From positions 35,175 to 99,174 of the forward strand of contig JACDGG010000001.1 in NCBI GenBank assembly GCA_013815355.1: a stretch of DNA of 64,000 bases, given 5' to 3'. How positions within the stretch are numbered: position 1 is the stretch's first letter; each line of letters opens with the position of its first letter. Below are positions 31,022-42,858 of the stretch, piece after piece. The stretch comes from Solirubrobacterales bacterium (GTDB lineage Bacteria; Actinomycetota; Thermoleophilia; Solirubrobacterales; Solirubrobacteraceae). Both the position numbers and the translations under genes were made by a program. A model generated the notes under the pieces. That model was not told the DNA's origin. It saw only the letters and a program-made list of their open reading frames with translations, and did not search any database.

Positions 31022-32113
31022 ATGGCGCCGCTCGCGAGCACTTATGATGCGAGCCTCGTGAAGGACACGCTCGATTTCATCATCATCGGTGCGCAAAAGG
31101 CGGGAACCACATCTCTCTTTGAGTATCTGAGAAACCATCCGGACCTCCAGCTTCCCGACGGCAAGGAGGCGCCGTTCTTCAGTCATGCAAGCGCATACGA
31201 GCGTGGCTGGGAGGACTACATCCTCAAAACGTTCGCGCTCACCGAAAGCGATGCTAGGTGGGGCACCGCGACGCCCCAATACATGGTCGGTGGCCTGTGG
31301 GAGCAGCCAAACCCAGCAGGCGAGAATGGCTATGACGAGCGCACCGTGCCGCGGCGGATCTATGAACAGCTTCCGCAGGTGCGCCTGATCGCGATCCTGC
31401 GCGATCCAGCTGAGCGTGCTCGCTCACACCACCGTATGTCTGTCATGAACGACATCGAGCAGCGCCCGTTTGCCCAGGCGATCGACGATCTGCTGAGACC
31501 CGAGGCTCTCGCTGAGGCACGTAGGGAACCGCGCGAGATCACGGGCTATGTGACGTGGGGAGAGTACGGGCGGATCCTCACTGGGTACTTGGATGTCTTC
31601 CCACGTGATCAGATCCTCGTGCTGTTCACCGATGAGCTCGAGCGCGAGCCCGAGCGGCTCCTGCGTCGCATCTATGAGTTTCTCGGGGTGAGGGCCGACT
31701 TCATGCCAGCGAACGTCGGCGAGCGCTACCGCGTAGGTGGTAGCGATCGGCGCTTCTCCTGGCTGGGGACCAACTCGCCGCTGAACCCCTGGGCAATGCA
31801 GCGCGCGCTCACCTCAAGCAAGGGCGCAACGCGCCTCTGGCACGCTTTGCCGCAGACCAGGCGCCGGCAGATCGACGGCCTCGTGCGGCGCGTCGGGTAC
31901 AGGATGGATCTATGGAACCGCCGTAGCGCGGCGGCACCGGTCGATGACGACGAGGCGACGATCAATCGGCTGCGAGAGCACTACGCGCCGGACGCCCTGC
32001 GGCTCGCGGAGCAGATGGGCGGCGAGCCTCCCTGGGCGCAGTCCAGCGGCGCTGGTGGCGAGCTCACCGCCGCTCGTTCGTCATCGCCAGAGGCCAGAAC
32101 GCCGTCGCATTAA
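31022..32113 (+). CDS. PAPS-dependent sulfotransferase, third copy
   Basis: A 363-aa sulfotransferase with FIIIGAQKAGTTSLFEYLRNHP and VRLIAILRDPAERARSHH as the two PAPS-binding segments, plus a longer C-terminus than the second copy. The start may be ATG 31022 or GTG 31058 just before the conserved domain. The last 50 bases overlap the convergent flippase gene in an opposite frame, so its final residues (rich in S, A and E) are not conserved-looking. It probably sulfates the polysaccharide. Confidence 0.86.
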   Translation: MAPLASTYDASLVKDTLDFIIIGAQKAGTTSLFEYLRNHPDLQLPDGKEAPFFSHASAYERGWEDYILKTFALTESDARWGTATPQYMVGGLWEQPNPAGENGYDERTVPRRIYEQLPQVRLIAILRDPAERARSHHRMSVMNDIEQRPFAQAIDDLLRPEALAEARREPREITGYVTWGEYGRILTGYLDVFPRDQILVLFTDELEREPERLLRRIYEFLGVRADFMPANVGERYRVGGSDRRFSWLGTNSPLNPWAMQRALTSSKGATRLWHALPQTRRRQIDGLVRRVGYRMDLWNRRSAAAPVDDDEATINRLREHYAPDALRLAEQMGGEPPWAQSSGAGGELTAARSSSPEARTPSH

Positions 32114-33476
32114 TTTTCAGGCGCCTACGGCAGAGGATGGTCAGGGCGACGTTCCACACGACAAAGCTCGCCGCGTCGGCGATCGCGGCTCCCGTCACGC
32201 CCAGAAACGGCACGAGCACGATCGTCAGAACCACGGTTGTCAGCAGGCCGAGCCCGACACCCCAGCAGGCCGCACGCTCGTGGCCGGTCATGATCAGCAC
32301 GGCGCCAACGGGACCGGCTGTGGCGTTGAACAGCTCGCCAAGCACGAGGATCCTGAGAGCTGTCCCGCCTGACGTGAACGCTGAGCCGAACAGGCCGAGA
32401 TAGACGCCGGGAAGCGCCACGAAGAAGATCACGATCGGCAGTGAAGCGATCACGCTCGCCTGCGCGATGCGTTCGGCGCCGTGCTCCATTCCCGCTAGAT
32501 CCCCCTTGGCGCGCATGCGCGCCACGAGCGGGGCAAACGGCATGTTGGCGGCGATCAGCAGCAGCACGATCAGCACGCCGCCTTTTTCTACCGCGCTGTA
32601 GATACCGGCGTCGCGTGTGCCCCCGATCGTGCCCACTGCGATCGTCGAGACATAGCCGTTGAGCTGCCAGATGCCTCCGATCAGCATCATCGGTAGCGCC
32701 GCAGAAACCCATTCTCGCATCTGGTATTTGGGAGCGGCAGAGCGCACCTGCTCAGGCACGGCTTTCCTCAAAGCGATCACGCCGGCGATAAAGGCCGTGC
32801 TCACCGCCGCCACGTTTACGAGCATCGCGGCGACGGGCGTGAGCACTTTCCCCCCCACGAGTGCCAGCGCGCCTACGCCGGCGATCAGGATCAGGGGGCG
32901 GATCACGAACTCAGGTATCTGCCCGACCACGACGCGCCCGAGCGCCTGCATCGTGCTCTGGCGCAGGATCGTCAGCGCGTTGATTGGGATCAGGGCCATC
33001 GCGAGCACGAACACGAGGCGCAAAGGTTCTGCAAGCGTCAGTAGGGCGATCGCCGAGCCGGCCGCCGCGATCGCGATCGAGGCGGCCGCGACGAGCGTGT
33101 TGGCGCGAATCAAAAGGCCGCGCAGGTGCTCCCACTTCTGCTTGACCTCATAGCCCGCGACGCCACGCACGACGAACAGGTTCAGGCCAAGCCCCGCGGG
33201 GATCGTCAGCGCCGAGGCCCACGCGAGCGCGAACACGTAGGCGCCATAGCCATGGCCGCCGAGCAGCCGCGCCAGCGCGACCGCCACGAGAAACCCGATC
33301 GCGCTCGAGGACGCCTGCAGCAAAGCTGTCGCCGAGGCACCAAACAGCATCCTGCGAACAAGCGAACGTGGCTGGGGAGCCTCCTGCGCGGTCGAGTCCT
33401 CCGAGGAGGTGAGGTCGGGCTGGCCTTCGGTGGGCGACGGCTCCAGCCGGCGTGTCACGCTTGGCATCTCACGCAT
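32064..33476 (-). CDS. Wzx-type flippase (polysaccharide transport, MATE/MOP superfamily)
   Basis: A 470-aa protein with about 12-14 hydrophobic segments, starting LLQASSSAIGFLVAVALARLLG and including LIGGIWQLNGYVSTIAVG and FFVALPGVYLGLFG. This is the pattern of Wzx-like oligosaccharide flippases that move the lipid-linked repeat across the membrane. The N-terminal 40 residues are soluble and S/E/P-rich. The 3' end overlaps the sulfotransferase gene by 50 bases, tail to tail. Confidence 0.88.
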   Translation of the reverse strand: MREMPSVTRRLEPSPTEGQPDLTSSEDSTAQEAPQPRSLVRRMLFGASATALLQASSSAIGFLVAVALARLLGGHGYGAYVFALAWASALTIPAGLGLNLFVVRGVAGYEVKQKWEHLRGLLIRANTLVAAASIAIAAAGSAIALLTLAEPLRLVFVLAMALIPINALTILRQSTMQALGRVVVGQIPEFVIRPLILIAGVGALALVGGKVLTPVAAMLVNVAAVSTAFIAGVIALRKAVPEQVRSAAPKYQMREWVSAALPMMLIGGIWQLNGYVSTIAVGTIGGTRDAGIYSAVEKGGVLIVLLLIAANMPFAPLVARMRAKGDLAGMEHGAERIAQASVIASLPIVIFFVALPGVYLGLFGSAFTSGGTALRILVLGELFNATAGPVGAVLIMTGHERAACWGVGLGLLTTVVLTIVLVPFLGVTGAAIADAASFVVWNVALTILCRRRLKINATAFWPLAMTNERR

Positions 33477-33648
33477 GCGCGAGCGTCATCCCGGAATCGG
33501 CGCGAGCGTGCAGCCGTGCTACGGCAAAGGGGTGCACGGCGGGCGCGTTGAGCCTCGCCACGCACATCACCACGATGCGATCCGTGCTCAAGCGCGCCAC
33601 GCTAATACGTTGGATGCGAGGTGGCTATCGTCGTTTTGTCCATTGCCG

Positions 33649-35406
33649 CTAGCGCTGGAATCTCCGTCGAGCGCGCCTGCGCCAGCGCATGAACGCCTGC
33701 CACCCGCCGGCCGAGAGATCCTGCCGCTGGACCGGGATTGCGTCGCCAATGCCAGAGGCTGGTGTGAGGATCGCCGCGCCGCTCGCCGCGGCAGACACGA
33801 ACGTGGGCTCGGTCCGGTAGGGCGAGGAGCGGGTCGCGAGCATGCGCTGCCATTCACCGACCCGCGGGACGGGACGGGCGGGCACTCGCGCTCTCGCCTG
33901 CGGGTTGCCCGCGACATCCGGATCGACGAGCACGGTCAAAAGGACGGCCGCGAGAGCGAGCCCGCTGGTGCTGAAAAGCGTCACGAGCGTCACCGAGGAG
34001 GTGAGGCTCGCCACGATCCAGATCGCCCCGCCGTAGCGCAGCCACGCATAGCGGCTTGGGCCCGCGGAGCGCCGCAGGCACATGATCAGCGTCAGCACGA
34101 CAGGCAGATAGATCAGCGCCGCTCCGATGGCTCCCATTGGCATGATGGCGTTTAGCACCCCGAGGTCTGGGTCCTCTATCGATCCGTGCGGCAGGCCATC
34201 GAAGTAGTGCACCGAGGGCGAGAGGAAGCCGAGCCCGCCGATCCACTGTTCACCCAAGTAAAATTTCATCGTCTTCGTCACAGCCTCTCGCACCGCGAGG
34301 GTTCCGCCGCTGCTTTCGATGTCGGAGAAGATCGATGTGATGCGTTCGATAAACGGGCCGCCGGAGAACAGGCCCGGCGCGATCAGAAGCACGGCGGCGA
34401 TGATCAGCACGATCCCACCGACGACGACGACCATCCGTTTGCGAAGTACCTTCGCGATCGCGACGCTGTTGGCGCTGTAGAGGACGAGCCACAGCGTGAC
34501 GAGCACAAAAGCCAGGATCAGGCCGATCCAGCGGGCCCGCGTGAGCTGCACGACAACGCTGACGAACAGCAGCAAAGCCACCGGGCGCGCGGCGATGCGC
34601 AGCGAGCGTTGCGGGGCCAGCAGACTCGCCGCGAGACTCAGCGCGAGCCCCGCGGTGACGAGGTCGGTCATCTCCGCATAGACGCGGGTCAGGCCGTCCT
34701 GGTGCAGGGTGTGCCCGACATGGATCAGCGAGCCGGGATTGCCCAGGCCCACGGCGGTCGCGGTCTGGACGAGCGCGAACAGGCAGACCCCGGCGGTGAG
34801 CGTTGCCAGCAGGGCGTGGAGGTCGCGGGTCGCTAGTCGCACGCGGGGAAGCAGGAGCAGCAGCACCGCAAAGTAGAGGTAGTTGCGGGCAAACGCGATC
34901 GTGGCCGTGATCCCCACGTGGTTTGAGACCATCGTCCGCGCTGCGGTGAACACGCACCACGTAAAAAGCAGCGTCGCGGCACCTATCACGAACCGTCCCG
35001 CGAAGCTCGGCCGATAGGGATTTGCATCCATCGCGATCCAGCCCAGCACGGTAAGCAGCAGCGTGCACAGGACGAGATCCTGCGTCGTGAAGTGACCGAT
35101 CAGATAGCGCGAGGTGTTCAGCACCGGGATGCCGTTCATCGCGGCGAGCACGAAAAGGCCTATGAACACGCCGCGATGGGCGAGCGCGAGCCTGCCCAGG
35201 AGGAGCACCGCGACCGCGATCGCGAAGGTCTTCATGCGTCCCTCTGCGATTGCCCACCCGCTCGCTGCCAAAAGGGCGACAGCTACGCCCGCAATTACGG
35301 CCGTCGTCGAGCTCCGGTTTGAGATCCCCCCGCGCCGCACGGCAGCGGCGCTGCCAAGCGCCAGCGCGCGTCCGATCGAGCCGATGTTTCGCTCTTGCGG
35401 GGGCAT
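33649..35406 (-). CDS. O-antigen ligase/polymerase-like membrane protein, second copy
   Basis: A 585-aa membrane protein with about 12 hydrophobic segments and the family loop (GLGFLSPSVHYFDGLPHGSIED). It has a long soluble C-terminus after LLTVLVDPDVAG, which is basic at the end (WRRRARRRFQR). It differs strongly from the first copy at 20839, so the locus has two polymerase/ligase candidates: perhaps one polymerises and the other attaches the chain. It sits upstream of the LuxR-type gene in transcription order. Confidence 0.82.
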   Translation of the reverse strand: MPPQERNIGSIGRALALGSAAAVRRGGISNRSSTTAVIAGVAVALLAASGWAIAEGRMKTFAIAVAVLLLGRLALAHRGVFIGLFVLAAMNGIPVLNTSRYLIGHFTTQDLVLCTLLLTVLGWIAMDANPYRPSFAGRFVIGAATLLFTWCVFTAARTMVSNHVGITATIAFARNYLYFAVLLLLLPRVRLATRDLHALLATLTAGVCLFALVQTATAVGLGNPGSLIHVGHTLHQDGLTRVYAEMTDLVTAGLALSLAASLLAPQRSLRIAARPVALLLFVSVVVQLTRARWIGLILAFVLVTLWLVLYSANSVAIAKVLRKRMVVVVGGIVLIIAAVLLIAPGLFSGGPFIERITSIFSDIESSGGTLAVREAVTKTMKFYLGEQWIGGLGFLSPSVHYFDGLPHGSIEDPDLGVLNAIMPMGAIGAALIYLPVVLTLIMCLRRSAGPSRYAWLRYGGAIWIVASLTSSVTLVTLFSTSGLALAAVLLTVLVDPDVAGNPQARARVPARPVPRVGEWQRMLATRSSPYRTEPTFVSAAASGAAILTPASGIGDAIPVQRQDLSAGGWQAFMRWRRRARRRFQR

Positions 35407-35481: not shown

Positions 35482-36180
35482 TCAAACCGCGGCCAGCGTC
35501 GGCGCCACGGGCTCTCCTCCGAGTGCCAGGATCCCCATCCCGAGGCCGCGTTCTGGATCGAGGATCAGGTTCACAGCCTCGTTGCGCGAGCGCACACCGA
35601 GCTTGCGAAACGCCGAGGAGAGATGGCTCTTGACGGTGCTCTCGGCGAGGAACAGCTGCTGGGCGATCAAGCCGTTTGTGTAGCCCATCACGACCAGGCC
35701 GAGGATCTGCTTCTCGCGCGAGGAGAGCGCGGGCGGCTCGAGCTGGCGCCATTGGGTGCGAGGCACGCATGCCTGGCCTGCCTGCACCGCTTGCGCGCAC
35801 GGCCCCAGCGTCGTTGCGAGGTCCTTCCAAAGCACGATCCCGGCAGCGCCGGCAGTCAGCGCGGCGCGGATGCCCCATCGCTCGATGCTGCGGCAGGCGA
35901 CGATCAGGGGCGTCTCAAGGAAGGCCCGCGTCAGCGGCTCGACGCAACGCGTGAGGCCGGAGGATGCGTTCTCGACCCAGAGCACGATCAGGGCCGGCCG
36001 CGACTCAGCTTGCTTCAGCAGCGCCTCGACGTCGTCGAAGGCGAGGAAGCTGTGCCCTTCCTTTGCGAGTATCTCGGCAAGCTTCTCGCTCGGAGCACCG
36101 ACAGCGACCACCGCCACCTGTCCGCCAGCCAACGTTCCCGCTGTGCCTGAGGCTCGAGCCTTAATGACAGCGCTTGGCAT
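35482..36180 (-). CDS. LuxR-family regulator with a receiver-like domain lacking the phospho-acceptor
   Basis: A 232-aa regulator with a strong AAGGAG site before ATG 36180. The C-terminal HTH is clear: LSSREKQILGLVVMGYTNGLIAQQL and ESTVKSHLSSAFRKLGV. The N-terminal part has a receiver-like layout, but the place of the phosphorylated Asp reads LIVLWVENASSG with no Asp, so phosphorylation control is unlikely. No histidine kinase lies nearby. The palindrome CCGACATTGTCGG is 75 bases upstream. It may regulate the lasso or polysaccharide genes on either side; the target is unproven. Confidence 0.82.
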   Translation of the reverse strand: MPSAVIKARASGTAGTLAGGQVAVVAVGAPSEKLAEILAKEGHSFLAFDDVEALLKQAESRPALIVLWVENASSGLTRCVEPLTRAFLETPLIVACRSIERWGIRAALTAGAAGIVLWKDLATTLGPCAQAVQAGQACVPRTQWRQLEPPALSSREKQILGLVVMGYTNGLIAQQLFLAESTVKSHLSSAFRKLGVRSRNEAVNLILDPERGLGMGILALGGEPVAPTLAAV

Positions 36181-36267: not shown

Positions 36268-36328
36268 CGCAATACGCAGCGACACCAGGAGCTGGCGGCG
36301 TTTCGAGCAATCAGGCGAGCCTGAACAC

Positions 36329-36358
36329 AAAACAGCCACCCCTGGGGATGGCTGTTTT
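36329..36358 (-). terminator. Rho-independent terminator after the lasso precursor
   Basis: Perfect 10-bp arms AAAACAGCCA/TGGCTGTTTT close a loop containing CCCC/GGGG, with TTTTG following on the minus strand. It lies 38 bases beyond the precursor stop and insulates the lasso cluster from the LuxR-type gene. The A-run on the other side would also allow action on the plus strand. Confidence 0.85.
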
Positions 36359-36396
36359 GCTGCTGCTACGTCAACAAGCGCCAGTGGCGCCGACGG

Positions 36397-36579
36397 CTAC
36401 GGCGTGGATTTGCAGCCGGCTGCCGGGTTGCTCGCGCCGACGCTGTATCCGCCCGCCACACCCGACGGGTCGAACGCGTCTCCGCCGGTTCCGCCCAGAC
36501 AAGCGGCCGTCAGCTCCTGCAGGTCGCCGTAGTCGACGACCTGAGGCGTCTGGTAGGCCAATACTCTCGTCTCATCCAT
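36397..36579 (-). CDS. Lasso-type RiPP precursor peptide
   Basis: A 60-aa peptide, MDETRVLAYQTPQVVD at the start. The leader matches the RRE recognition pattern Y-x2-P-x-(L/V)-x3-G-x5-T (YQTPQVVDYGDLQELT). If the usual rule of Thr at -2 holds, the leader ends LTA and the core begins ACLGGTGGD, placing Asp exactly at position 9 for a nine-residue macrolactam ring; C1 (D8) and G1 (D8 or D9) registers are alternatives. The core would be 35 aa, long for a lasso peptide, with Cys2 and Cys31 and C-terminus CKSTP. AGGATC lies about ten bases before ATG 36579. It is last in the cluster, 107 bases after the cyclase, and ends in a strong terminator. The upstream ORF extension is rejected. Confidence 0.82.
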   Translation of the reverse strand: MDETRVLAYQTPQVVDYGDLQELTAACLGGTGGDAFDPSGVAGGYSVGASNPAAGCKSTP

Positions 36580-36686
36580 GGATGTGATCCTATCTGTCGA
36601 TATTCGCCCCGCAGGATACGAAGCGGCCCCAACCACTGCTAACCAGCGGAACATCTGCCATCAGAGTAGAGGACCCCACGATTCAG
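36580..36686 (-). promoter_or_regulatory. Gap before the precursor with a possible dedicated promoter
   Basis: 107 bases separate the cyclase stop from the precursor start, the largest gap in the cluster. Reading on the minus strand, TTAGCA and TATCCT are spaced 18 bases apart, a weak -35/-10 pair. Separate high-level transcription of the precursor would make sense. Confidence 0.3.
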
Positions 36687-38591
36687 TCAAGGTGGAAAAA
36701 CGTACTGGCCGCCCACAGCGGCCCCGCTGGGGACCCTACGAGTCACGATTCGTGCTCCGCTCGCGCGCTCGGTGATCCTCATCGTATCCTCGCCTTCCTG
36801 GGCCCGCAGCCAGCACTCGGCGGTGAGCAGCCTCCACACCTGCCACATCCAGCGGAACGACCGTTGACCGCTGGCCGCGGGTCCGAACAGTGCGTGCTGC
36901 ATCTCCGCTAGATCGACATAGCTGCCCAGACGGGCGTGCGGATCGCCGATCAGCTCCCGCGCGGGCGCTCCGTCAGAGCCGGCGAGGCAGTCCAAGAGCA
37001 GCGAGTCAAATAGGGCCTTCTCTGGACGCAGGCGCACCGAGTCTGGCAGAAGGCCCGCCATCGCGAGCCGAAGCCCGGTGCGGCTGCGATGGCGGTCGAA
37101 GGTGCTCAGCGGCGCCATGCTCAGGCAGAGCTCCAGGAGCTCAAGGTCAAACAGCGGATGGCGTGCCTGCATTCCGGCCGAGGCCGCCCGACGGCGCTGG
37201 TGCTCAAAGACGCCGGTCTCCTCGACGCCACGCGTGAGCCCGTGCGCGGCAGCCGCCCACCAGCGCGGCCCGTCCAGGCGCTTCCACGCGTGCGGATCCT
37301 CGCTATCGATCAGGTCGCGGGCGAGCGGCGACTGCAGCCAGCTGGGTAGGGCGCGCCGTGCGCCCGATCGCTGCAGAGCAACCTGAAGTCGACGGGGCAG
37401 GGCACCGGACAGGGCGGTGTTGGCGAAGATCCTTGCCATGTCGCGTCGCGCTGGGTGATCACCCGCGCCGGGTAGCTCCCGCGTTAGGGCCAGTGCCTCA
37501 AACGGATGCCCTGCACGCAACCGATCGGCCATCAGGTAGGAGCGCGCGCCAAAGAGCTCATCGCCGCCGTCACCGCCAAGCGTCACCCGCACCCCGGCCG
37601 TGGCCGCAGCGCGCAGCAGCGGAAGCGCCCAGAAGTCCCCCCAGCTACGAAGCGGCAGCTGCCACTCATCGATCGACTCCACGGCGCTCGCCAGCAAGCC
37701 CCCGGCGCGGACCTCGGCCGTTATCCCAGGGAGCTCGAGCGCCGCGCGCAGCTCCTCGATCAGATCGGACTCATCGACCGCCGGATGCTCGGGGAACACG
37801 GCTGCCTGCGCGCGCACCCGGCCGGGTGCGCATGCGCAGGCCACGGCGGCGATCGAGGAGGAGTCAAGGCCGCCGCTCATCAACACGCCCGTGAGGCCGT
37901 CGTTGCTGATCCGGCGCGTGACCGCGCGCTCGAGCGTCGTGCGGATCTCCCCGGCGAGCTGCGCTTCGGTTCTGAGCGGAGGCTCGCGGAAGCGAGGCTC
38001 CCAGTAGGACACCTCGCGCGCACCGTCACGATCGAGCAGCAACGCCGCGCCCGGGTTCAGGCGACGAATGCCCACATAGAGGGTTGCCGAGCCGGGCCTG
38101 TTGCTCATCGTGATCCAGTGCGCGACGCTTACCCGATCAGGCTCCGGGCGGCGGGGCAGCAGCGCGAGCAGGCTGCGGATCTCGCTGGCGAAGTGCAGGC
38201 GCCCGGAGCTCTCGTGCAAGAACATCGAGCGCACGCCGAGCTGATCGCGTGCGAGCAGTCCCTCGCCGCGATCCTGATCCCAGATCAGCACGGCGAAGTC
38301 ACCGCGTATGCGCGGCAGGAGATCCGCTCCCCAGCTCCGCCAGGCGGCCGCGAGCAGCTCCTCCTCTGGGGCGTCGAAATGCGAGCCGAGCGCGGAGCTG
38401 AGCTCTGCCGCGTTGTCGAGAAAGCCATCGAGCAGACACAGCGTGGAGCCCTGGAGAGGCTGCACGCCGCTATAGGCCACGTGCAGCGCTCCGCGCTCGA
38501 TGACCGACGCATCACCGGGCAGCGCTCCTGCCAGGCGCAAGGAGTCCATCCGAGCGCTCGGATCAAAGACCCCGGCGAGCCAGCGGGTCAT
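36687..38591 (-). CDS. Lasso cyclase, asparagine synthetase-like (C protein)
   Basis: A 634-aa enzyme that would adenylate the side-chain carboxylate of the core acidic residue and close the macrolactam. The N-terminal glutaminase-like domain lacks the nucleophilic Cys2 (starts MTRWLAG). The synthetase domain has the PP-loop VLMSGGLDSSS and GGDGGDELFG. After WRLLTAECWLRAQ, where related proteins end, there is an extra 36-residue tail ending GGQYVFPP, with an in-frame ATG preceded by GGAAGGCGAGGA. The start overlaps the kinase-1 stop by four bases (ATGA). The next gene downstream is the precursor. Confidence 0.9.
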   Translation of the reverse strand: MTRWLAGVFDPSARMDSLRLAGALPGDASVIERGALHVAYSGVQPLQGSTLCLLDGFLDNAAELSSALGSHFDAPEEELLAAAWRSWGADLLPRIRGDFAVLIWDQDRGEGLLARDQLGVRSMFLHESSGRLHFASEIRSLLALLPRRPEPDRVSVAHWITMSNRPGSATLYVGIRRLNPGAALLLDRDGAREVSYWEPRFREPPLRTEAQLAGEIRTTLERAVTRRISNDGLTGVLMSGGLDSSSIAAVACACAPGRVRAQAAVFPEHPAVDESDLIEELRAALELPGITAEVRAGGLLASAVESIDEWQLPLRSWGDFWALPLLRAAATAGVRVTLGGDGGDELFGARSYLMADRLRAGHPFEALALTRELPGAGDHPARRDMARIFANTALSGALPRRLQVALQRSGARRALPSWLQSPLARDLIDSEDPHAWKRLDGPRWWAAAAHGLTRGVEETGVFEHQRRRAASAGMQARHPLFDLELLELCLSMAPLSTFDRHRSRTGLRLAMAGLLPDSVRLRPEKALFDSLLLDCLAGSDGAPARELIGDPHARLGSYVDLAEMQHALFGPAASGQRSFRWMWQVWRLLTAECWLRAQEGEDTMRITERASGARIVTRRVPSGAAVGGQYVFPP

Positions 38592-39523
38592 GCCGAGGAG
38601 CTCAGCCGTTGCAAGAGCGCCCCGGCCAGCTCCGGGGCGCTCGTGGCAGAGCCACAGCTGATCAGCTCAACCCGTGCTCGGGCCGCGAGCGAGCACACCT
38701 CGAGCAGGCCGCTGAGGCGCTCGGGGGTGGCCAACACGAAGTTGAAGGTTGCCGAGAGCAGAATCTGCGCGTCCGTGCCCGACGCGAACTGTGGGCTTTC
38801 GGGCCCGTCAGGGCGGCGGTCGATGAAGAACAGCGTGTTGAGCGGCGCAGGCTCGGCAGCCCCCGCGACCCTCACCATCCGCTCCCTGTCGTTTACCGCG
38901 ACGACATCCTGCGCTGTATCGCGCTCGTCGCGATGATCGCGGGTGACGCCCGCGATCGGCGTCCCTGGCAGGGCGTAGAGGCTGCCGCCACGGGCTTCGA
39001 GGGTGAGAACGTCGTCGGCGAGGAAGCTAGCGCCAGCCCTACAGAGCTCGAGGGCCAGCGTGGTCTTGCCCGCGCGCGAGGGGCCAAGCAGGGCGATCGC
39101 CTGCCCCGCGTGCACGACGGCGCTGGCGTGGAAGACCTCCAGGCCGTGCAGCAAAGCGGCAAACGGCAGGACCTGGGCGATGAGCAATCGCTGCCATACC
39201 CCGTCGGGCCGGCCTTCGGGGAAGCACCTCAGCGTCTCCCCGTCGGCCGCGAGGAGATGGGCTCCATACGCCGGTCCGTAGATCAGATAGCCCGCCTCGG
39301 GGCGTGTCTCGATACGGAAGTTGACGCTCCCATCCGGTCCTCGTTCGTCACAGATCAGCTCCGCGCCTGGCGGCCAATGCGACGCGGCCTGATCGAAGTG
39401 CGTGGAAATCGCAAGCGTGCGACCACTCGGCGTCGGTGAGGGGCCAGCGAGAAACCACAGCGGTATCTCAGAGCTGATGTCTAGGCCAAAGGCCGTGGCT
39501 GTCGTTGACAGCAGCTGTCCCAT
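38588..39523 (-). CDS. HprK-like serine kinase 1 of the lasso cluster
   Basis: A 311-aa protein with Walker A ALLGPSRAGKTTLALEL and FLADDVLTL, the HPr kinase C-terminal fold; the N-terminal half is a lasso/PqqD-cluster-specific extension (LLHGLEVFHASAVVHAG precedes the P-loop). In paeninodin-type clusters a kinase of this kind phosphorylates the C-terminal Ser of the lasso precursor. Here the precursor ends CKSTP, so Ser or Thr near the end is a possible target. It joins the B2 gene by TGATG and the cyclase by ATGA. Confidence 0.82.
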   Translation of the reverse strand: MGQLLSTTATAFGLDISSEIPLWFLAGPSPTPSGRTLAISTHFDQAASHWPPGAELICDERGPDGSVNFRIETRPEAGYLIYGPAYGAHLLAADGETLRCFPEGRPDGVWQRLLIAQVLPFAALLHGLEVFHASAVVHAGQAIALLGPSRAGKTTLALELCRAGASFLADDVLTLEARGGSLYALPGTPIAGVTRDHRDERDTAQDVVAVNDRERMVRVAGAAEPAPLNTLFFIDRRPDGPESPQFASGTDAQILLSATFNFVLATPERLSGLLEVCSLAARARVELISCGSATSAPELAGALLQRLSSSA

Positions 39524-39981
39524 CAGAGCTCGACCAGCCGGCCAAACGAACCATCGCCTGGGTCCAGTACGGGGTCTCCTGCGTGCTCGACCCAGGCGTG
39601 GGCCAGAAACTCGGGTGTCGTGCGTGCGCCGATCACCAGCTTTGCCTCGATACCACGACTGGCCAGCAGCCGGGTGAGTACAAGCGAGCGTGCCAGACAG
39701 CGGGTGTCGCCCGGCACATATCTCAGCAGCCGGGCAACCGCGTGGCTCAGTCGCCGCGCCTCTTCGAGTGAGCCCGGCGAGGGCGGCATGGCCGGGGAGG
39801 ACCGCGATCGCAGCCTCGCTATGACCGGCGCTATCGGCGTGTTGCGAAGCGCTCTGCGTGCCTGGCCGTAGGCCGCGAGGATCTCTACGGCGAGCCGCAG
39901 ACGCTCGAGTTGACCCAAACGCTCGGGTGCTCTCCTCGGCGGAGCTGAAACCTGCCGAGGCTCAGGGCCCGGAGCTGCCAT
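39523..39981 (-). CDS. Lasso leader peptidase, transglutaminase-like (B2)
   Basis: A 152-aa cysteine protease of the McjB C-terminal family. The triad is visible: Cys in GDTRCLARSLVLTRLLASRG, His in FLAHAWVEHAG and Asp in PVLDPGDGSF. It would cut the leader from the core. The N-terminal RRE is absent and is supplied by the separate B1 gene. Its ATG lies inside the last 20 bases of B1, so translation is coupled; a later start is possible as the first 25 residues are not conserved-looking. Confidence 0.88.
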   Translation of the reverse strand: MAAPGPEPRQVSAPPRRAPERLGQLERLRLAVEILAAYGQARRALRNTPIAPVIARLRSRSSPAMPPSPGSLEEARRLSHAVARLLRYVPGDTRCLARSLVLTRLLASRGIEAKLVIGARTTPEFLAHAWVEHAGDPVLDPGDGSFGRLVEL

Positions 39982-40279
39982 CGGTCTCGATCAACCCACG
40001 CTCCAGCAGCGAGGAGCACAGGGTGCAGAGGTCGGCCTCGATCGCGCTCTGGGCCTGCTCGTAGCTCACAGCCAGCTCGGCTGCGGCGTCGCGCACGCAG
40101 TCCGCCCGCTCGAGCACCTCGAGCATGCGCCCGGCCGTCGCGTTGAGCCCGTGGTACTTACCGGTCTGCAGGTTGAGCACCACCGTCTCCGACGGGAAGC
40201 TGCGATAGACGACATGCTGCGGCATCCTGACCTTGGCGGCCAAGAGCAATGAGGCATCTGGCACGGTTCGCGGGATCAT
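39962..40279 (-). CDS. RiPP recognition element, PqqD-like (B1)
   Basis: A 105-aa PqqD-family protein: VVYRSFPSETVVLNLQTGKYHGLNATAGRMLEVLE is the typical winged-helix beta-strands plus helix, followed by the helical C-terminus. It would hold the precursor leader (YxxPxLxxxG) and present it to B2. The ORF track shows a longer frame, but ATG 40279 with AGGACC upstream fits the family length. A gap of 19 bases separates it from the permease stop. Confidence 0.85.
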   Translation of the reverse strand: MIPRTVPDASLLLAAKVRMPQHVVYRSFPSETVVLNLQTGKYHGLNATAGRMLEVLERADCVRDAAAELAVSYEQAQSAIEADLCTLCSSLLERGLIETDGSSGP

Positions 40280-40298
40280 TGGCAATAGGTCCTGACTG

Positions 40299-41159
40299 TC
40301 AGTACTCGATGATCGTCCCGCGCCGCTGACCAAAGCGGATCGCGCGACCGAGGACGAAGATGGATAGGGGTAGCAGCACCGCCGCAAAGCCGACGAGCTT
40401 GAGTAGCGCCGTCTCAGAGGACTCGCCCAGCGAGCTGTCGACGAGCAGATGCCGCAGCAGATCCGTCGCGGCCGTAAACGGCTGCAGCCTTGAGATCGTC
40501 TGTAGCCAGCCCGGCAGCAGCGAGACAGGGAAGTAGAGCCCGCCGACGATCGACAGCATCGCCACCACCCAGCTGGTTCCGACGTTTCCCTGCTTGATGA
40601 CGACCGTGAGGGCGGCAAAGAGCACGCCAAAGGGCAGGAAGGCAAATAGCACGAGCAGCATCACCGGAAGCGCGACCGGCACCGTGGACCAGTGCAGATG
40701 CAGGTCGAAGATCACACAGCCGAGGCCGAGCGTGATCGCCGCAAGCACAAACGAGTACATCATCGGAAAGAACGTCATCGCGAGCACGCTGCGGATCGCG
40801 CCAAACGGCGAGAGCAGCAGCCGGTCGAAGGTGCCCGCGATGAGCTCCTGGCGCACCAGTTCGGGGATCGAGAAGCACGAGTAGAGGACGCTGATCAGCG
40901 AGATGCCAACGACGACAAAGCCGAAGTAGGAGTTGGATGAGGCAAAGCCGTGCACGTGGACGAGCCGCGAGACGTAGTAGAAGAGGGTGAGGCTGAACAG
41001 CGCGGTGAGCACCTGGCTGACCAGGCGGGTGCGGTAGGACCGGTACACGTACAGGTCCCTGCGCATCACCGCGAGAAACGCGTATGCGGCTGTGGTCGCA
41101 TCGCTCATTGAGCCACCAACCGTCCCTGCTCGAGCATCCAGTGGGGTCGCATCGCTCAT
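40299..41159 (-). CDS. ABC-2 type permease of the lasso cluster
   Basis: A 286-aa membrane protein with six hydrophobic segments (YFGFVVVGISLISVLYSCF, MYSFVLAAITLGLGCVIF, VALPVMLLVLFAFLPFGVLF and others), the ABC-2 exporter fold, with FDRLLLSPF before the third segment. With the adjacent ATPase it probably exports the mature peptide and gives self-immunity, in place of the single McjD-type transporter. The ATG at 41159 overlaps the ATPase stop (ATGA). A 51-bp tandem duplication repeats PLDARAGTVGGSMSDAT, so a second start, ATG 41108, with the same upstream bases exists and would give 269 aa. Confidence 0.85.
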   Translation of the reverse strand: MSDATPLDARAGTVGGSMSDATTAAYAFLAVMRRDLYVYRSYRTRLVSQVLTALFSLTLFYYVSRLVHVHGFASSNSYFGFVVVGISLISVLYSCFSIPELVRQELIAGTFDRLLLSPFGAIRSVLAMTFFPMMYSFVLAAITLGLGCVIFDLHLHWSTVPVALPVMLLVLFAFLPFGVLFAALTVVIKQGNVGTSWVVAMLSIVGGLYFPVSLLPGWLQTISRLQPFTAATDLLRHLLVDSSLGESSETALLKLVGFAAVLLPLSIFVLGRAIRFGQRRGTIIEY

Positions 41160-41195
41160 TGAGCCACCAACCGTCCCTGCTCGAGCATCCAGTGG
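41094..41195. repeat. Perfect 51-bp tandem duplication at the ATPase/permease junction
   Basis: Two identical 51-base copies (41094-41144 and 41145-41195) start ggtcgcatcgctcattgag. The unit contains the last codons of the ATPase, its TGA and the permease ATG. Being 17 codons long, it keeps the permease frame, duplicating its start and ribosome-site region. No base difference between copies points to a very recent event. Confidence 0.97.
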
Positions 41196-41902
41196 AAGTC
41201 GAAGTTGATGTCCAGGCTTTCGCCGCTCGGTGAGCACCAGAGGACCGCGCCGTCACGCTCGAGCAGTCCGCTCACAGCGCCTTGCAGGAGATCTCCGCCC
41301 TCCGTGTCGAGGCTCGTCAGCGGCTCGTCCAGCAGCACTACCTCCGGATGGGGAAGGAAGGTCATCGCGATGCGCAGGCGTTGACGCTGGCCCATCGACA
41401 TGCGGTCCACCCGGCGATTGGCGAGATCGGCGAGATCGAATCTGACGATCGCCTCCTCGATCCACTCGCGGAAGCGCTCGCGTGGGACCATCGCGATACG
41501 TGCCCAGAACTCGAGCTGGCGGCGCACGGTGAGCCGCGCGTACAGCCCGCGATCACCCGCGGGCAGGAACGAGACGAGCTGCTGGTAGCGCACACGGTGC
41601 TTGTTCGGGTGCAGACCCCAAACTTCGGCGCGTCCGCCGTCAGGCTCGATCAGCCCCGCCGCTATCCGCAGCATCGTCGTCTTGCCGATCCCGTTGCGCC
41701 CGCCCACCCATGTAACCGTTCCAGGCGCGAGCGTCAGCTCGAGCTCATCGAGCACAAGTGGCAGGTCCTTGCGCCAGCGCTTACTGACCCGATCAAGCCT
41801 CAGCGGCGCCGCATTCAAGGACGGCTCCTGGGCATGCTCAGGCGCGGTCAGCATCGGGCGATCGCTCGTGGGAGCGGTTAGGGGCGCCGGTCTCGCCGTC
41901 AC
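41156..41902 (-). CDS. ABC transporter ATP-binding protein of the lasso cluster
   Basis: A 248-aa ATPase: Walker A WVGGRNGIGKTTMLRI, signature MSMGQRQRLRIAM, Walker B VVLLDEPLTSLD; the Q-loop region is LVSFLPAGDRGLYARLTVRRQ. It pairs with the ABC-2 permease to form an exporter. The GTG start at 41902 overlaps the kinase-2 stop by four bases; the ATG giving MLTAPEHAQ is a possible alternative. Confidence 0.9.
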   Translation of the reverse strand: MTARPAPLTAPTSDRPMLTAPEHAQEPSLNAAPLRLDRVSKRWRKDLPLVLDELELTLAPGTVTWVGGRNGIGKTTMLRIAAGLIEPDGGRAEVWGLHPNKHRVRYQQLVSFLPAGDRGLYARLTVRRQLEFWARIAMVPRERFREWIEEAIVRFDLADLANRRVDRMSMGQRQRLRIAMTFLPHPEVVLLDEPLTSLDTEGGDLLQGAVSGLLERDGAVLWCSPSGESLDINFDFHWMLEQGRLVAQ

Positions 41903-42858
41903 AGCAGCGCTCCGTTGTCAATCGGCGTTTGGCGGGCGAGCGCGCCTTCGATCAGCTCGGCGAGCACGGCCGGCTCCTGCTCGAGGCTTGCCGTGAGCCG
42001 CACAAGCGCTGTCTGCTCCATCAGGTCTGCATACAGCGAGAAGCGATCGCGCTGGCGCTCCTGCTCGCCGGGCTGGCCCAGCATGTAGGGAGCAAGCGGC
42101 AAGGGGCTCGGCGCCAGCGGGCTGACAGCGGTCGGTAGCTCAGCACCGCGCTCGAGCATGCACAGCATCCGCACCGGGCGTGGCTGGGTCGTCGTGTTGC
42201 CCACCGCCAGCCAGTGCTCGCCGGCGAGGGTCGCAAGCGATTCGCCGAGCGTATGCGGATCGATCCCCCGGAGTGTGCCCGTGGCGAGGTTCATGTGCGG
42301 AGAGCCGGGGTGCGCGAGGACCCCGTCGGCTGTGCGCTGCAGGACCAGCACGTCATCGGCGAACAGCGCCCAGCCGCGGTTGAGCATCTCGATTGCGAGC
42401 GTGGACTTGCCCATCCCGCTGGGTGCCATGATCGCCACCACGCCCTCGCTTGAATCCACGGCCGCTGCGTGTAGGGCCTCATAGCCGCGCATCACGCTAA
42501 TCGCCGGGATCACCTTGCTGATGAGCACTCGCTGCCAATCGAGGGATTCGCGCTCGGGTACGCAATCAAGCTGGCGCATGTCAGCGTGTAGAAGGAAACG
42601 CGCACGATTTCCATAGACAAAGAGTGCCTCGCCGTCGGCTCCTTGTTCGATCAGGAAGTCTTGGCCGTCGCCGAGGCGTCCACGCCACTCAGGTGAACCG
42701 GCCACGGCCCCCCACTCGCGCTCGAGCTCCTCCGGCGTGATCCGCGCGAGCGCTAGTACCGGAAGATCGGGATGTTCGACGGGCGAGATGGGCTCACTTC
42801 CCAGGAGCGGAAACGCGCAGGTCAGGTGCAGACCATAGGCGGCGTAGTGGCTCTCCAT
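41899..42858 (-). CDS. HprK-like kinase 2, first gene of the lasso operon
   Basis: A 319-aa protein with the same layout as kinase 1: an N-terminal domain, then VVAIMAPSGMGKSTLAIEML (Walker A) and ALFADDVLVLQ. Sequence outside the P-loop and ADDVL motifs differs clearly from kinase 1, so this is an old paralog or a separately acquired gene. It starts at ATG 42858, the first gene of a chain of overlapping genes ending at the cyclase. It may modify the precursor at a second site or act with kinase 1; no known lasso cluster with two such kinases comes to my mind. Confidence 0.8.
   Translation of the reverse strand: MESHYAAYGLHLTCAFPLLGSEPISPVEHPDLPVLALARITPEELEREWGAVAGSPEWRGRLGDGQDFLIEQGADGEALFVYGNRARFLLHADMRQLDCVPERESLDWQRVLISKVIPAISVMRGYEALHAAAVDSSEGVVAIMAPSGMGKSTLAIEMLNRGWALFADDVLVLQRTADGVLAHPGSPHMNLATGTLRGIDPHTLGESLATLAGEHWLAVGNTTTQPRPVRMLCMLERGAELPTAVSPLAPSPLPLAPYMLGQPGEQERQRDRFSLYADLMEQTALVRLTASLEQEPAVLAELIEGALARQTPIDNGALL

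What the first reader, a model, noticed from the sequence alone, without database searches (positions are those of the whole stretch)
36329..42858. Lasso-type RiPP cluster with two HprK-like kinases
Seen: leader with YxxPxLxxxG-x5-T, PqqD-like B1, transglutaminase-like B2 with Cys-His-Asp, Asn-synthetase-like cyclase, a split ABC exporter, and two proteins with HPr-kinase P-loops and ADDVL motifs. Known: single HprK-like kinases in lasso clusters such as paeninodin phosphorylate the precursor C-terminal Ser. Inference: this cluster may carry out two phosphorylations or a two-step kinase relay. Gene order K2-ATPase-permease-B1-B2-K1-C-A with coupled junctions is unusual because the precursor is last.
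Basis: partly seen in the sequence, partly recalled or inferred. Interest (0 to 1): 0.9.

Follow-up and report, generated by a model that had tools for sequence, protein, structure and literature searches.

The report
Lasso peptide cluster with two kinases
A soil bacterium's gene cluster for a knotted (lasso) peptide carries two different HPr-kinase-like enzymes instead of the usual one; the pair recurs in five genomes of one bacterial order, so these peptides are probably phosphorylated in a way not described before, but the sites are not yet known.

Summary
The finding is real. On the minus strand, 36397-42858 is a tightly coupled lasso-peptide operon: K2, ABC ATPase, ABC-2 permease, B1 (PqqD/RRE), B2 (protease), K1, cyclase, precursor. 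A strong terminator and a LuxR-type regulator follow. The predicted core is ACLGGTGGDAFDPSGVAGGYSVGASNPAAGCKSTP (Ala1-Asp9 ring).

K1 and K2 both model as the HprK/PEPCK P-loop fold and keep the His, Lys and Asp-Asp residues that proved essential in tested lasso kinases. They form two separate, well-supported sister clades. The genome has no HPr.

K1+K2 clusters occur in five genomes from three families of one order (Solirubrobacterales by named relatives). A syntenic copy in a second family (G448) has a 70%-identical precursor. K1 occurs alone in about ten further clusters; K2 occurs alone only as one damaged orphan. I found no published two-kinase lasso cluster.

Precursor-last gene order is normal in this lineage. 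The C-terminal-Ser model does not transfer directly: the core ends in Pro.

Best reading: both kinases phosphorylate the linear precursor, K1 near the C-terminus (Ser33/Thr34) and K2 at a second hydroxyl. Activity is inferred from relatives; site assignment is weak. New variant of a known kind.

The parts
41899..42858 (-). K2: second HprK-fold kinase (319 aa), first gene of the operon
   Evidence: H130, G150-K151-S152, D168-D169; AlphaFold pLDDT 85.8; Foldseek to PEPCK and HprK, E about 1e-6; own clade, 100/97 support
41156..41902 (-). D1: ABC exporter ATPase
   Evidence: PF00005 84.6 bits; ATGA overlap with K2
40299..41159 (-). D2: ABC-2 type permease; a 51-bp tandem duplication gives an alternative start at 41108
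   Evidence: PF01061 58.6 bits; repeat
39962..40279 (-). B1: PqqD-like RiPP recognition element
   Evidence: PF05402 46 bits against 23.4; NF033530 lasso_PqqD 38 bits, below its cut-off of 70
39523..39981 (-). B2: leader peptidase, transglutaminase-like with Cys-His-Asp
   Evidence: NF033537 85.9 bits against 33; PF13471 79.6 bits
38588..39523 (-). K1: first HprK-fold kinase (311 aa)
   Evidence: H132, G152-K153-T154, D170-D171; AlphaFold pLDDT 74.9; Foldseek to PEPCK and HprK; K1 clade, 99/96 support
36687..38591 (-). C: lasso cyclase, asparagine-synthetase-like, with SGGLDSS motif and no glutaminase Cys at position 2
   Evidence: PF00733 128 bits; below the curated cut-offs of asn_synth_AEB and lass_lactam_cya; 58% identical to the cyclase of L105
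36397..36579 (-). A: precursor, 60 aa; leader MDETRVLAYQTPQVVDYGDLQELTA, predicted core ACLGGTGGDAFDPSGVAGGYSVGASNPAAGCKSTP
   Evidence: NF033521 23.7 bits against 19; Asp at core position 9 is nearly invariant among 17 aligned relatives
36327..36358 (-). Intrinsic terminator after A: hairpin followed by a U-rich run
   Evidence: 15 base pairs, -25.3 kcal/mol, z -5.9
35482..36180 (-). R: LuxR/NarL-type regulator with degenerate receiver domain, probably a separate transcript
   Evidence: PF00196 64.9 bits; homologues sit beside eight related clusters (L035, L039, L040, L041, L044, L045, L105, L107)

Best explanation
This is a lasso-peptide biosynthetic operon whose precursor is phosphorylated by two paralogous HprK-fold kinases before it is matured. 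B1 binds the leader and presents the linear precursor. K1 phosphorylates a hydroxyl near the C-terminus (Ser33 or Thr34 of the core). K2 phosphorylates a second hydroxyl; in the window the weak favourite is Ser14, just after the ring. B2 then removes the leader after ELTA, C closes Ala1 onto Asp9, Cys2 and Cys31 may pair as a ring-to-tail disulfide, and D1/D2 export the product. Shown by sequence: the genes, motifs, fold and conservation. Inferred: that both kinases act on the precursor (from PadeK, ThcoK, SyanK, PsmK and BsfK), and which residues they use.
For: Lasso identity of A, B1, B2 and C. Both kinases model as HprK/PEPCK folds and keep the His, Lys and Asp-Asp residues shown to be needed in tested lasso kinases (PMC9266682, PMC10368454). 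No HPr in the genome, with positive controls. K1 and K2 are two supported sister clades, 99/96 and 100/97. K1+K2 clusters are kept in five genomes of three families, including a syntenic copy with a 70%-identical precursor, so the second kinase is selected for. All eight single-K1 cores have [FYL][ST] within six residues of the C-terminus, against 1.85 expected from shuffles, which points K1 at the C-terminal region.
Against: No biochemistry. K1 and K2 share only about 32% identity and are distant from the tested kinases. PadeK needs a C-terminal Ser, and this core ends in Pro. Two-kinase cores lack the [FYL][ST] motif of single-K1 cores (0 of 10). No second hydroxyl is conserved in all ten two-kinase cores: S/T at core positions 12-15 is found in 9 of 10, against 3 of 8 in single-K1 cores (Fisher p 0.043, chosen after looking), and one core (L034c) has only one tail Ser/Thr.
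Confidence: 0.5

Rival explanations
1. Relay on one site: K1 adds the first phosphate and K2 extends it to a di- or polyphosphate on the same residue.
For: Single lasso kinases (ThcoK, SyanK, PsmK) already make polyphosphorylated Ser (PMC9266682). In the seven two-kinase cores of G214 and G017 only one hydroxyl, at position -6 from the C-terminus, is conserved in all.
Against: Known kinases polyphosphorylate without a partner, so a second enzyme is not required. The window and L105 cores have several hydroxyls conserved between them.
Confidence: 0.17
2. K1 and K2 form a hetero-oligomer and only one site is phosphorylated; the second subunit gives specificity or leader binding.
For: HprK is a hexamer (established knowledge). 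K2 is found with K1 in every intact cluster.
Against: Both copies keep the full catalytic set in all five clusters; a non-catalytic partner would be expected to lose it. K1 works alone in about ten clusters.
Confidence: 0.13
3. K2 modifies something other than the precursor (immunity factor, exporter or small molecule), or is dispensable and decaying.
For: K2 survives as an orphan in G246 with DD changed to DE and with no lasso genes found nearby. In the window and L105 it sits beside the exporter genes.
Against: In the five clusters K2 is intact and inside the biosynthetic block; in L035 and L036 it is next to B1. All tested kinases of this kind in lasso clusters act on the precursor.
Confidence: 0.15
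4. K1 and K2 are true HPr kinases of carbon-catabolite control.
For: Weak HPr-kinase domain hits.
Against: No HPr in the genome while the control genomes ring; both lie inside a lasso operon; scores are far below the hpr-ser cut-off of 240 bits.
Confidence: 0.01

Closest known systems
Paeninodin cluster with PadeK (and ThcoK)
   Same: Separate B1, B2, C and a precursor with an HprK-like kinase carrying His-Lys-Asp-Asp. Some single-K1 relatives of the window have cores resembling a Priestia paeninodin-family core..DAAFPPGTPKGDLTFSN against ..DAAFPTHTPKGDLTFES.
   Different: One kinase only and a C-terminal Ser target. The window core ends in Pro, has two Cys, and does not hit NF033524. A paeninodin-family kinase falls outside the K1+K2 clade.
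Bradymonas bsf cluster (BsfK)
   Same: An HprK-like kinase distant from PadeK that phosphorylates the precursor, at ring Ser3, helped by B1 (PMC10368454).
   Different: One kinase plus a nucleotidyltransferase; penultimate leader residue Ile, here Thr.
Pseudomycoidin cluster (PsmK and PsmN)
   Same: Two tailoring enzymes acting on one peptide in succession (PMC9266682).
   Different: The second enzyme is a nucleotidyltransferase that adds hexose, not a second kinase.
HPr-rel-A/B systems (TIGR04352, TIGR04355, TIGR04353)
   Same: HprK-related kinase with a PqqD-like protein.
   Different: Scores of 20-34 bits against cut-offs of 200; here there is a cyclase, a B2 and a lasso precursor.

Membership tests
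Lasso peptide biosynthetic cluster | Precursor with lasso leader and Thr at -2 | tested here: met
   NF033521 23.7 bits against 19; P, D, G and T of the leader invariant over 17 relatives
Lasso peptide biosynthetic cluster | Asp or Glu at core position 7-9 | tested here: met
   Asp9; column nearly invariant
Lasso peptide biosynthetic cluster | RRE (B1) and leader peptidase (B2) | tested here: met
   PF05402 and NF033537 above their cut-offs
Lasso peptide biosynthetic cluster | Asparagine-synthetase-like cyclase | tested here: met
   PF00733 128 bits; below the cut-off of the curated cyanobacterial lasso cyclase model, so assigned by domain and context
Lasso peptide biosynthetic cluster | Threaded product | not testable with these tools
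   Needs the isolated product
Lasso precursor kinase (PadeK/BsfK type) | HprK-type P-loop fold | tested here: met
   AlphaFold and Foldseek for K1 and K2
Lasso precursor kinase (PadeK/BsfK type) | Catalytic His, Lys and Asp-Asp | tested here: met
   All present in K1 and K2 and in all four other K1+K2 clusters (L105 rows)
Lasso precursor kinase (PadeK/BsfK type) | Transfers phosphate to the precursor | not testable with these tools
   No assay
PadeK group (C-terminal Ser kinases) | Ser at the precursor's C-terminus | tested here: not met
   Core ends CKSTP; nearest hydroxyls at -2 and -3
PadeK group (C-terminal Ser kinases) | Clusters with PadeK-type sequences | tested here: not met
   K1+K2 form their own clade (97/96), apart from the Priestia paeninodin-family kinase
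HPr kinase/phosphorylase | HPr substrate in the genome | tested here: not met
   No PTS-HPr match in the own genome; 7 of 14 controls ring
HPr kinase/phosphorylase | Score above the hpr-ser model cut-off (240) | tested here: not met
   19.6 and 28.9 bits
HPr-rel-A/B system | Kinase over the TIGR04352 or TIGR04355 cut-off (200) | tested here: not met
   20-34 bits

The most novel reading that the evidence does not exclude
An ancestral duplication in this order gave a two-kinase lasso pathway in which the paralogues have separate duties on one precursor (two phosphosites, or phosphate followed by diphosphate), kept for a long time and lost repeatedly in lines that reverted to a single C-terminal phosphate. 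This would be the first dual-kinase RiPP tailoring system.
Probability: 0.4. Interest if true: 0.7.

Novelty: new variant of a known kind. Interest (0 to 1): 0.52.

Why it matters
Lasso peptides are studied as stable scaffolds, and phosphorylation is one of their few known tailoring steps, always by one kinase in the papers I could search. Two kinases kept together in five genomes imply two jobs on one small peptide. That makes two open questions testable in E. coli: how these kinases choose their residue, and what phosphates on lasso peptides are for. The single-K1 relatives give a built-in comparison set.

Tried and rejected
Ordinary HPr kinases: rejected, no HPr in the genome. Ordinary asparagine synthetase: rejected. 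Precursor-last order as a novelty: rejected, common in relatives. Window-specific quirk or recent duplication: rejected, K1 and K2 are separate clades shared across families. A ring hydroxyl as the K2 mark: ring S/T is no more common in two-kinase than in single-K1 cores (9/10 and 6/8, shuffles 8.3 and 5.9), so no case. S/T at core positions 12-15 as the K2 site: only p 0.043 after looking, kept as a weak lead. Single-sequence search of K1 against PDB sequences gave only P-loop noise. The genome-contig scan gave two close relatives (L058, L059) and two remote ones (L060, L061). A tblastn of K2 in plasmids gave nine remote hits, two of them in annotated lasso clusters, used as references, and one in a locus with no lasso genes annotated. 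L106 (G564) has three HprK-like genes within 20 kb, but these look like neighbouring systems rather than one two-kinase cluster. Paper searches for two-kinase lasso clusters found none; only openly licensed PMC text is held.

Full report
What is there. The minus strand from 42858 down to 36397 holds eight genes in one direction: K2, ABC ATPase, ABC-2 permease, B1, B2, K1, cyclase, precursor. Overlaps are 4 nt at K2/ATPase, ATPase/permease and K1/C, 1 nt at B2/K1 and 20 nt at B1/B2; the precursor starts 107 nt after the cyclase. A hairpin with U-run at 36327-36358 folds at -25.3 kcal/mol, z -5.9, and a LuxR-type regulator follows at 35482-36180. The window is part of a 99-kb contig of a 3.2-Mb genome. 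Named close relatives are a Solirubrobacteraceae MAG and an Actinobacteria MAG.

Lasso identity. The precursor hits NCBIfam lasso_leader_L3 above its cut-off, B2 hits the curated lasso B2 model at 85.9 bits, and B1 hits PqqD. The cyclase has the Asn_synthase and GATase_7 domains but scores below the curated cut-offs of both true asparagine synthase and the curated cyanobacterial lasso cyclase, and it lacks the glutaminase Cys at position 2. Seventeen precursors from this and related loci align with invariant leader P, D, G and T and a nearly invariant Asp at core position 9. The leader Thr at -2 places the cut after ELTA, giving the core ACLGGTGGDAFDPSGVAGGYSVGASNPAAGCKSTP with a nine-residue ring. 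Cys2 and Cys31 are both kept in the syntenic L105 precursor, so a ring-to-tail disulfide is plausible (inference).

The kinases. Single-sequence HMM scores are weak, but AlphaFold models of K2 (pLDDT 85.8) and K1 (74.9) match HPr kinase and PEP carboxykinase structures, and a K2-clade profile finds HprK in the PDB at 1e-7. Both keep the His, the P-loop Lys and Ser/Thr, and the Asp pair, which are the residues shown to matter in PadeK/ThcoK and in BsfK (PMC9266682, PMC10368454). The genome has no HPr, so the name reflects fold, not substrate.

Distribution. Searches of 399 genomes of the class, 146 of the family, 232 of the order and 397 of the phylum (the sets overlap) found K1+K2 clusters in five genomes from three families of one order: the window, L105 (G448), L034 (G214), L035 (G178) and L036 (G017). 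L105 has the same order K2-D1-D2-B1-B2-K1-C-A-R and a precursor 70% identical over the matched stretch. In the tree, K2 sequences form one clade (100/97) and K1 sequences another (99/96), and the two are sisters (98/95). K1 occurs without K2 in about ten clusters (some cut off by contig ends), mostly ordered D1-D2-B1-K1-B2-C-A, so precursor-last is normal here. K2 without K1 was seen once, in G246 of the window's own genus, with DD changed to DE and no lasso genes found in the stretch; that copy is probably decaying. The L036 lineage branches first in both the K1 and the K2 clade, which fits an old duplication with later losses of K2, but the cyclase tree neither proves nor excludes this.

Substrate sites. 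Single-K1 cores all have an [FYL][ST] pair within six residues of the C-terminus (8/8, 1.85 expected from shuffles). Several resemble a Priestia core annotated as paeninodin family (L138), although they do not hit the paeninodin model NF033524. PadeK phosphorylates the C-terminal Ser of paeninodin (PMC9266682). This points K1 at the C-terminal region. Two-kinase cores never have that motif (0/10), and nine of ten end in Pro. In the seven cores of G214 and G017, of which four are encoded away from the operon, a Ser/Thr at -6 is always present. In the window the nearest C-terminal hydroxyls are Ser33 and Thr34. For K2 the best lead is a Ser/Thr at core positions 12-15 (9/10 against 3/8; p 0.043, post hoc), which is Ser14 here. 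I regard the site assignment as weak.

Mechanism and verdict. The likeliest course is leader binding by B1, phosphorylation of the linear precursor by K1 and K2, leader removal by B2, ring closure by C and export by D1/D2. Kinase action before folding is the rule in the tested systems (PMC9266682, PMC8498205). Two different sites is favoured over a one-site relay, a K1-K2 heteromer, or another target for K2; only experiments can decide. The kind of system is known and the two-kinase form appears new: no paper in the openly licensed library describes one, though subscription papers were not searched.

Noticed in passing
window 41094-41195: Perfect 51-bp tandem duplication across the ATPase stop / permease start; it repeats the start region and adds 17 residues (or an alternative start) to the permease.
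   Followed up: partly
L033:9023-10150 (G246; same DNA as L058, VAXW01000005.1): Orphan K2 homologue, 47% identical, in the window's own genus; DD changed to DE, no lasso genes found nearby, polysaccharide-type genes downstream as in the window.
   Followed up: partly
L135:3411-4127 (G017), L136:4593-4874 and L156:1425-1630 (G214): Lasso precursors encoded far from the biosynthetic operon, sharing a GxEDGxxK ring and a Ser/Thr at -6: two in G017 and two in G214.
   Followed up: partly
L036 and L121 (G017): In a one-contig genome the two-kinase cluster lacks B2; the only B2 match is about 0.56 Mb away and the precursors are elsewhere again, so the pathway is split.
   Followed up: partly
window 35482-36180: LuxR-type regulator whose receiver domain seems to lack the phosphoacceptor Asp (LIVLWVENA); homologues sit beside eight related clusters.
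   Followed up: partly
L106:3694-14406 (G564): Three HprK-like genes, three PqqD-like genes and two lasso-like precursors in a 20-kb stretch with glycosyltransferases; looks like neighbouring RiPP systems.
   Followed up: partly
L138:4983-5918 (NZ_CP064100.1): HprK-like kinase in a plasmid paeninodin-family cluster is annotated as 'aldolase' (WP_243495797.1).
   Followed up: no
L140:4676-9129 (Azospirillum plasmid NZ_CP054615.1): Lasso-type cluster with a single HprK-like kinase, a 2OG-Fe(II) oxygenase and a nucleotidyltransferase.
   Followed up: no
window 32064-35406: A polysaccharide-type flippase and an O-antigen-ligase-like protein lie just downstream of the cluster; similar genes flank the orphan K2 in G246.
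   Followed up: no
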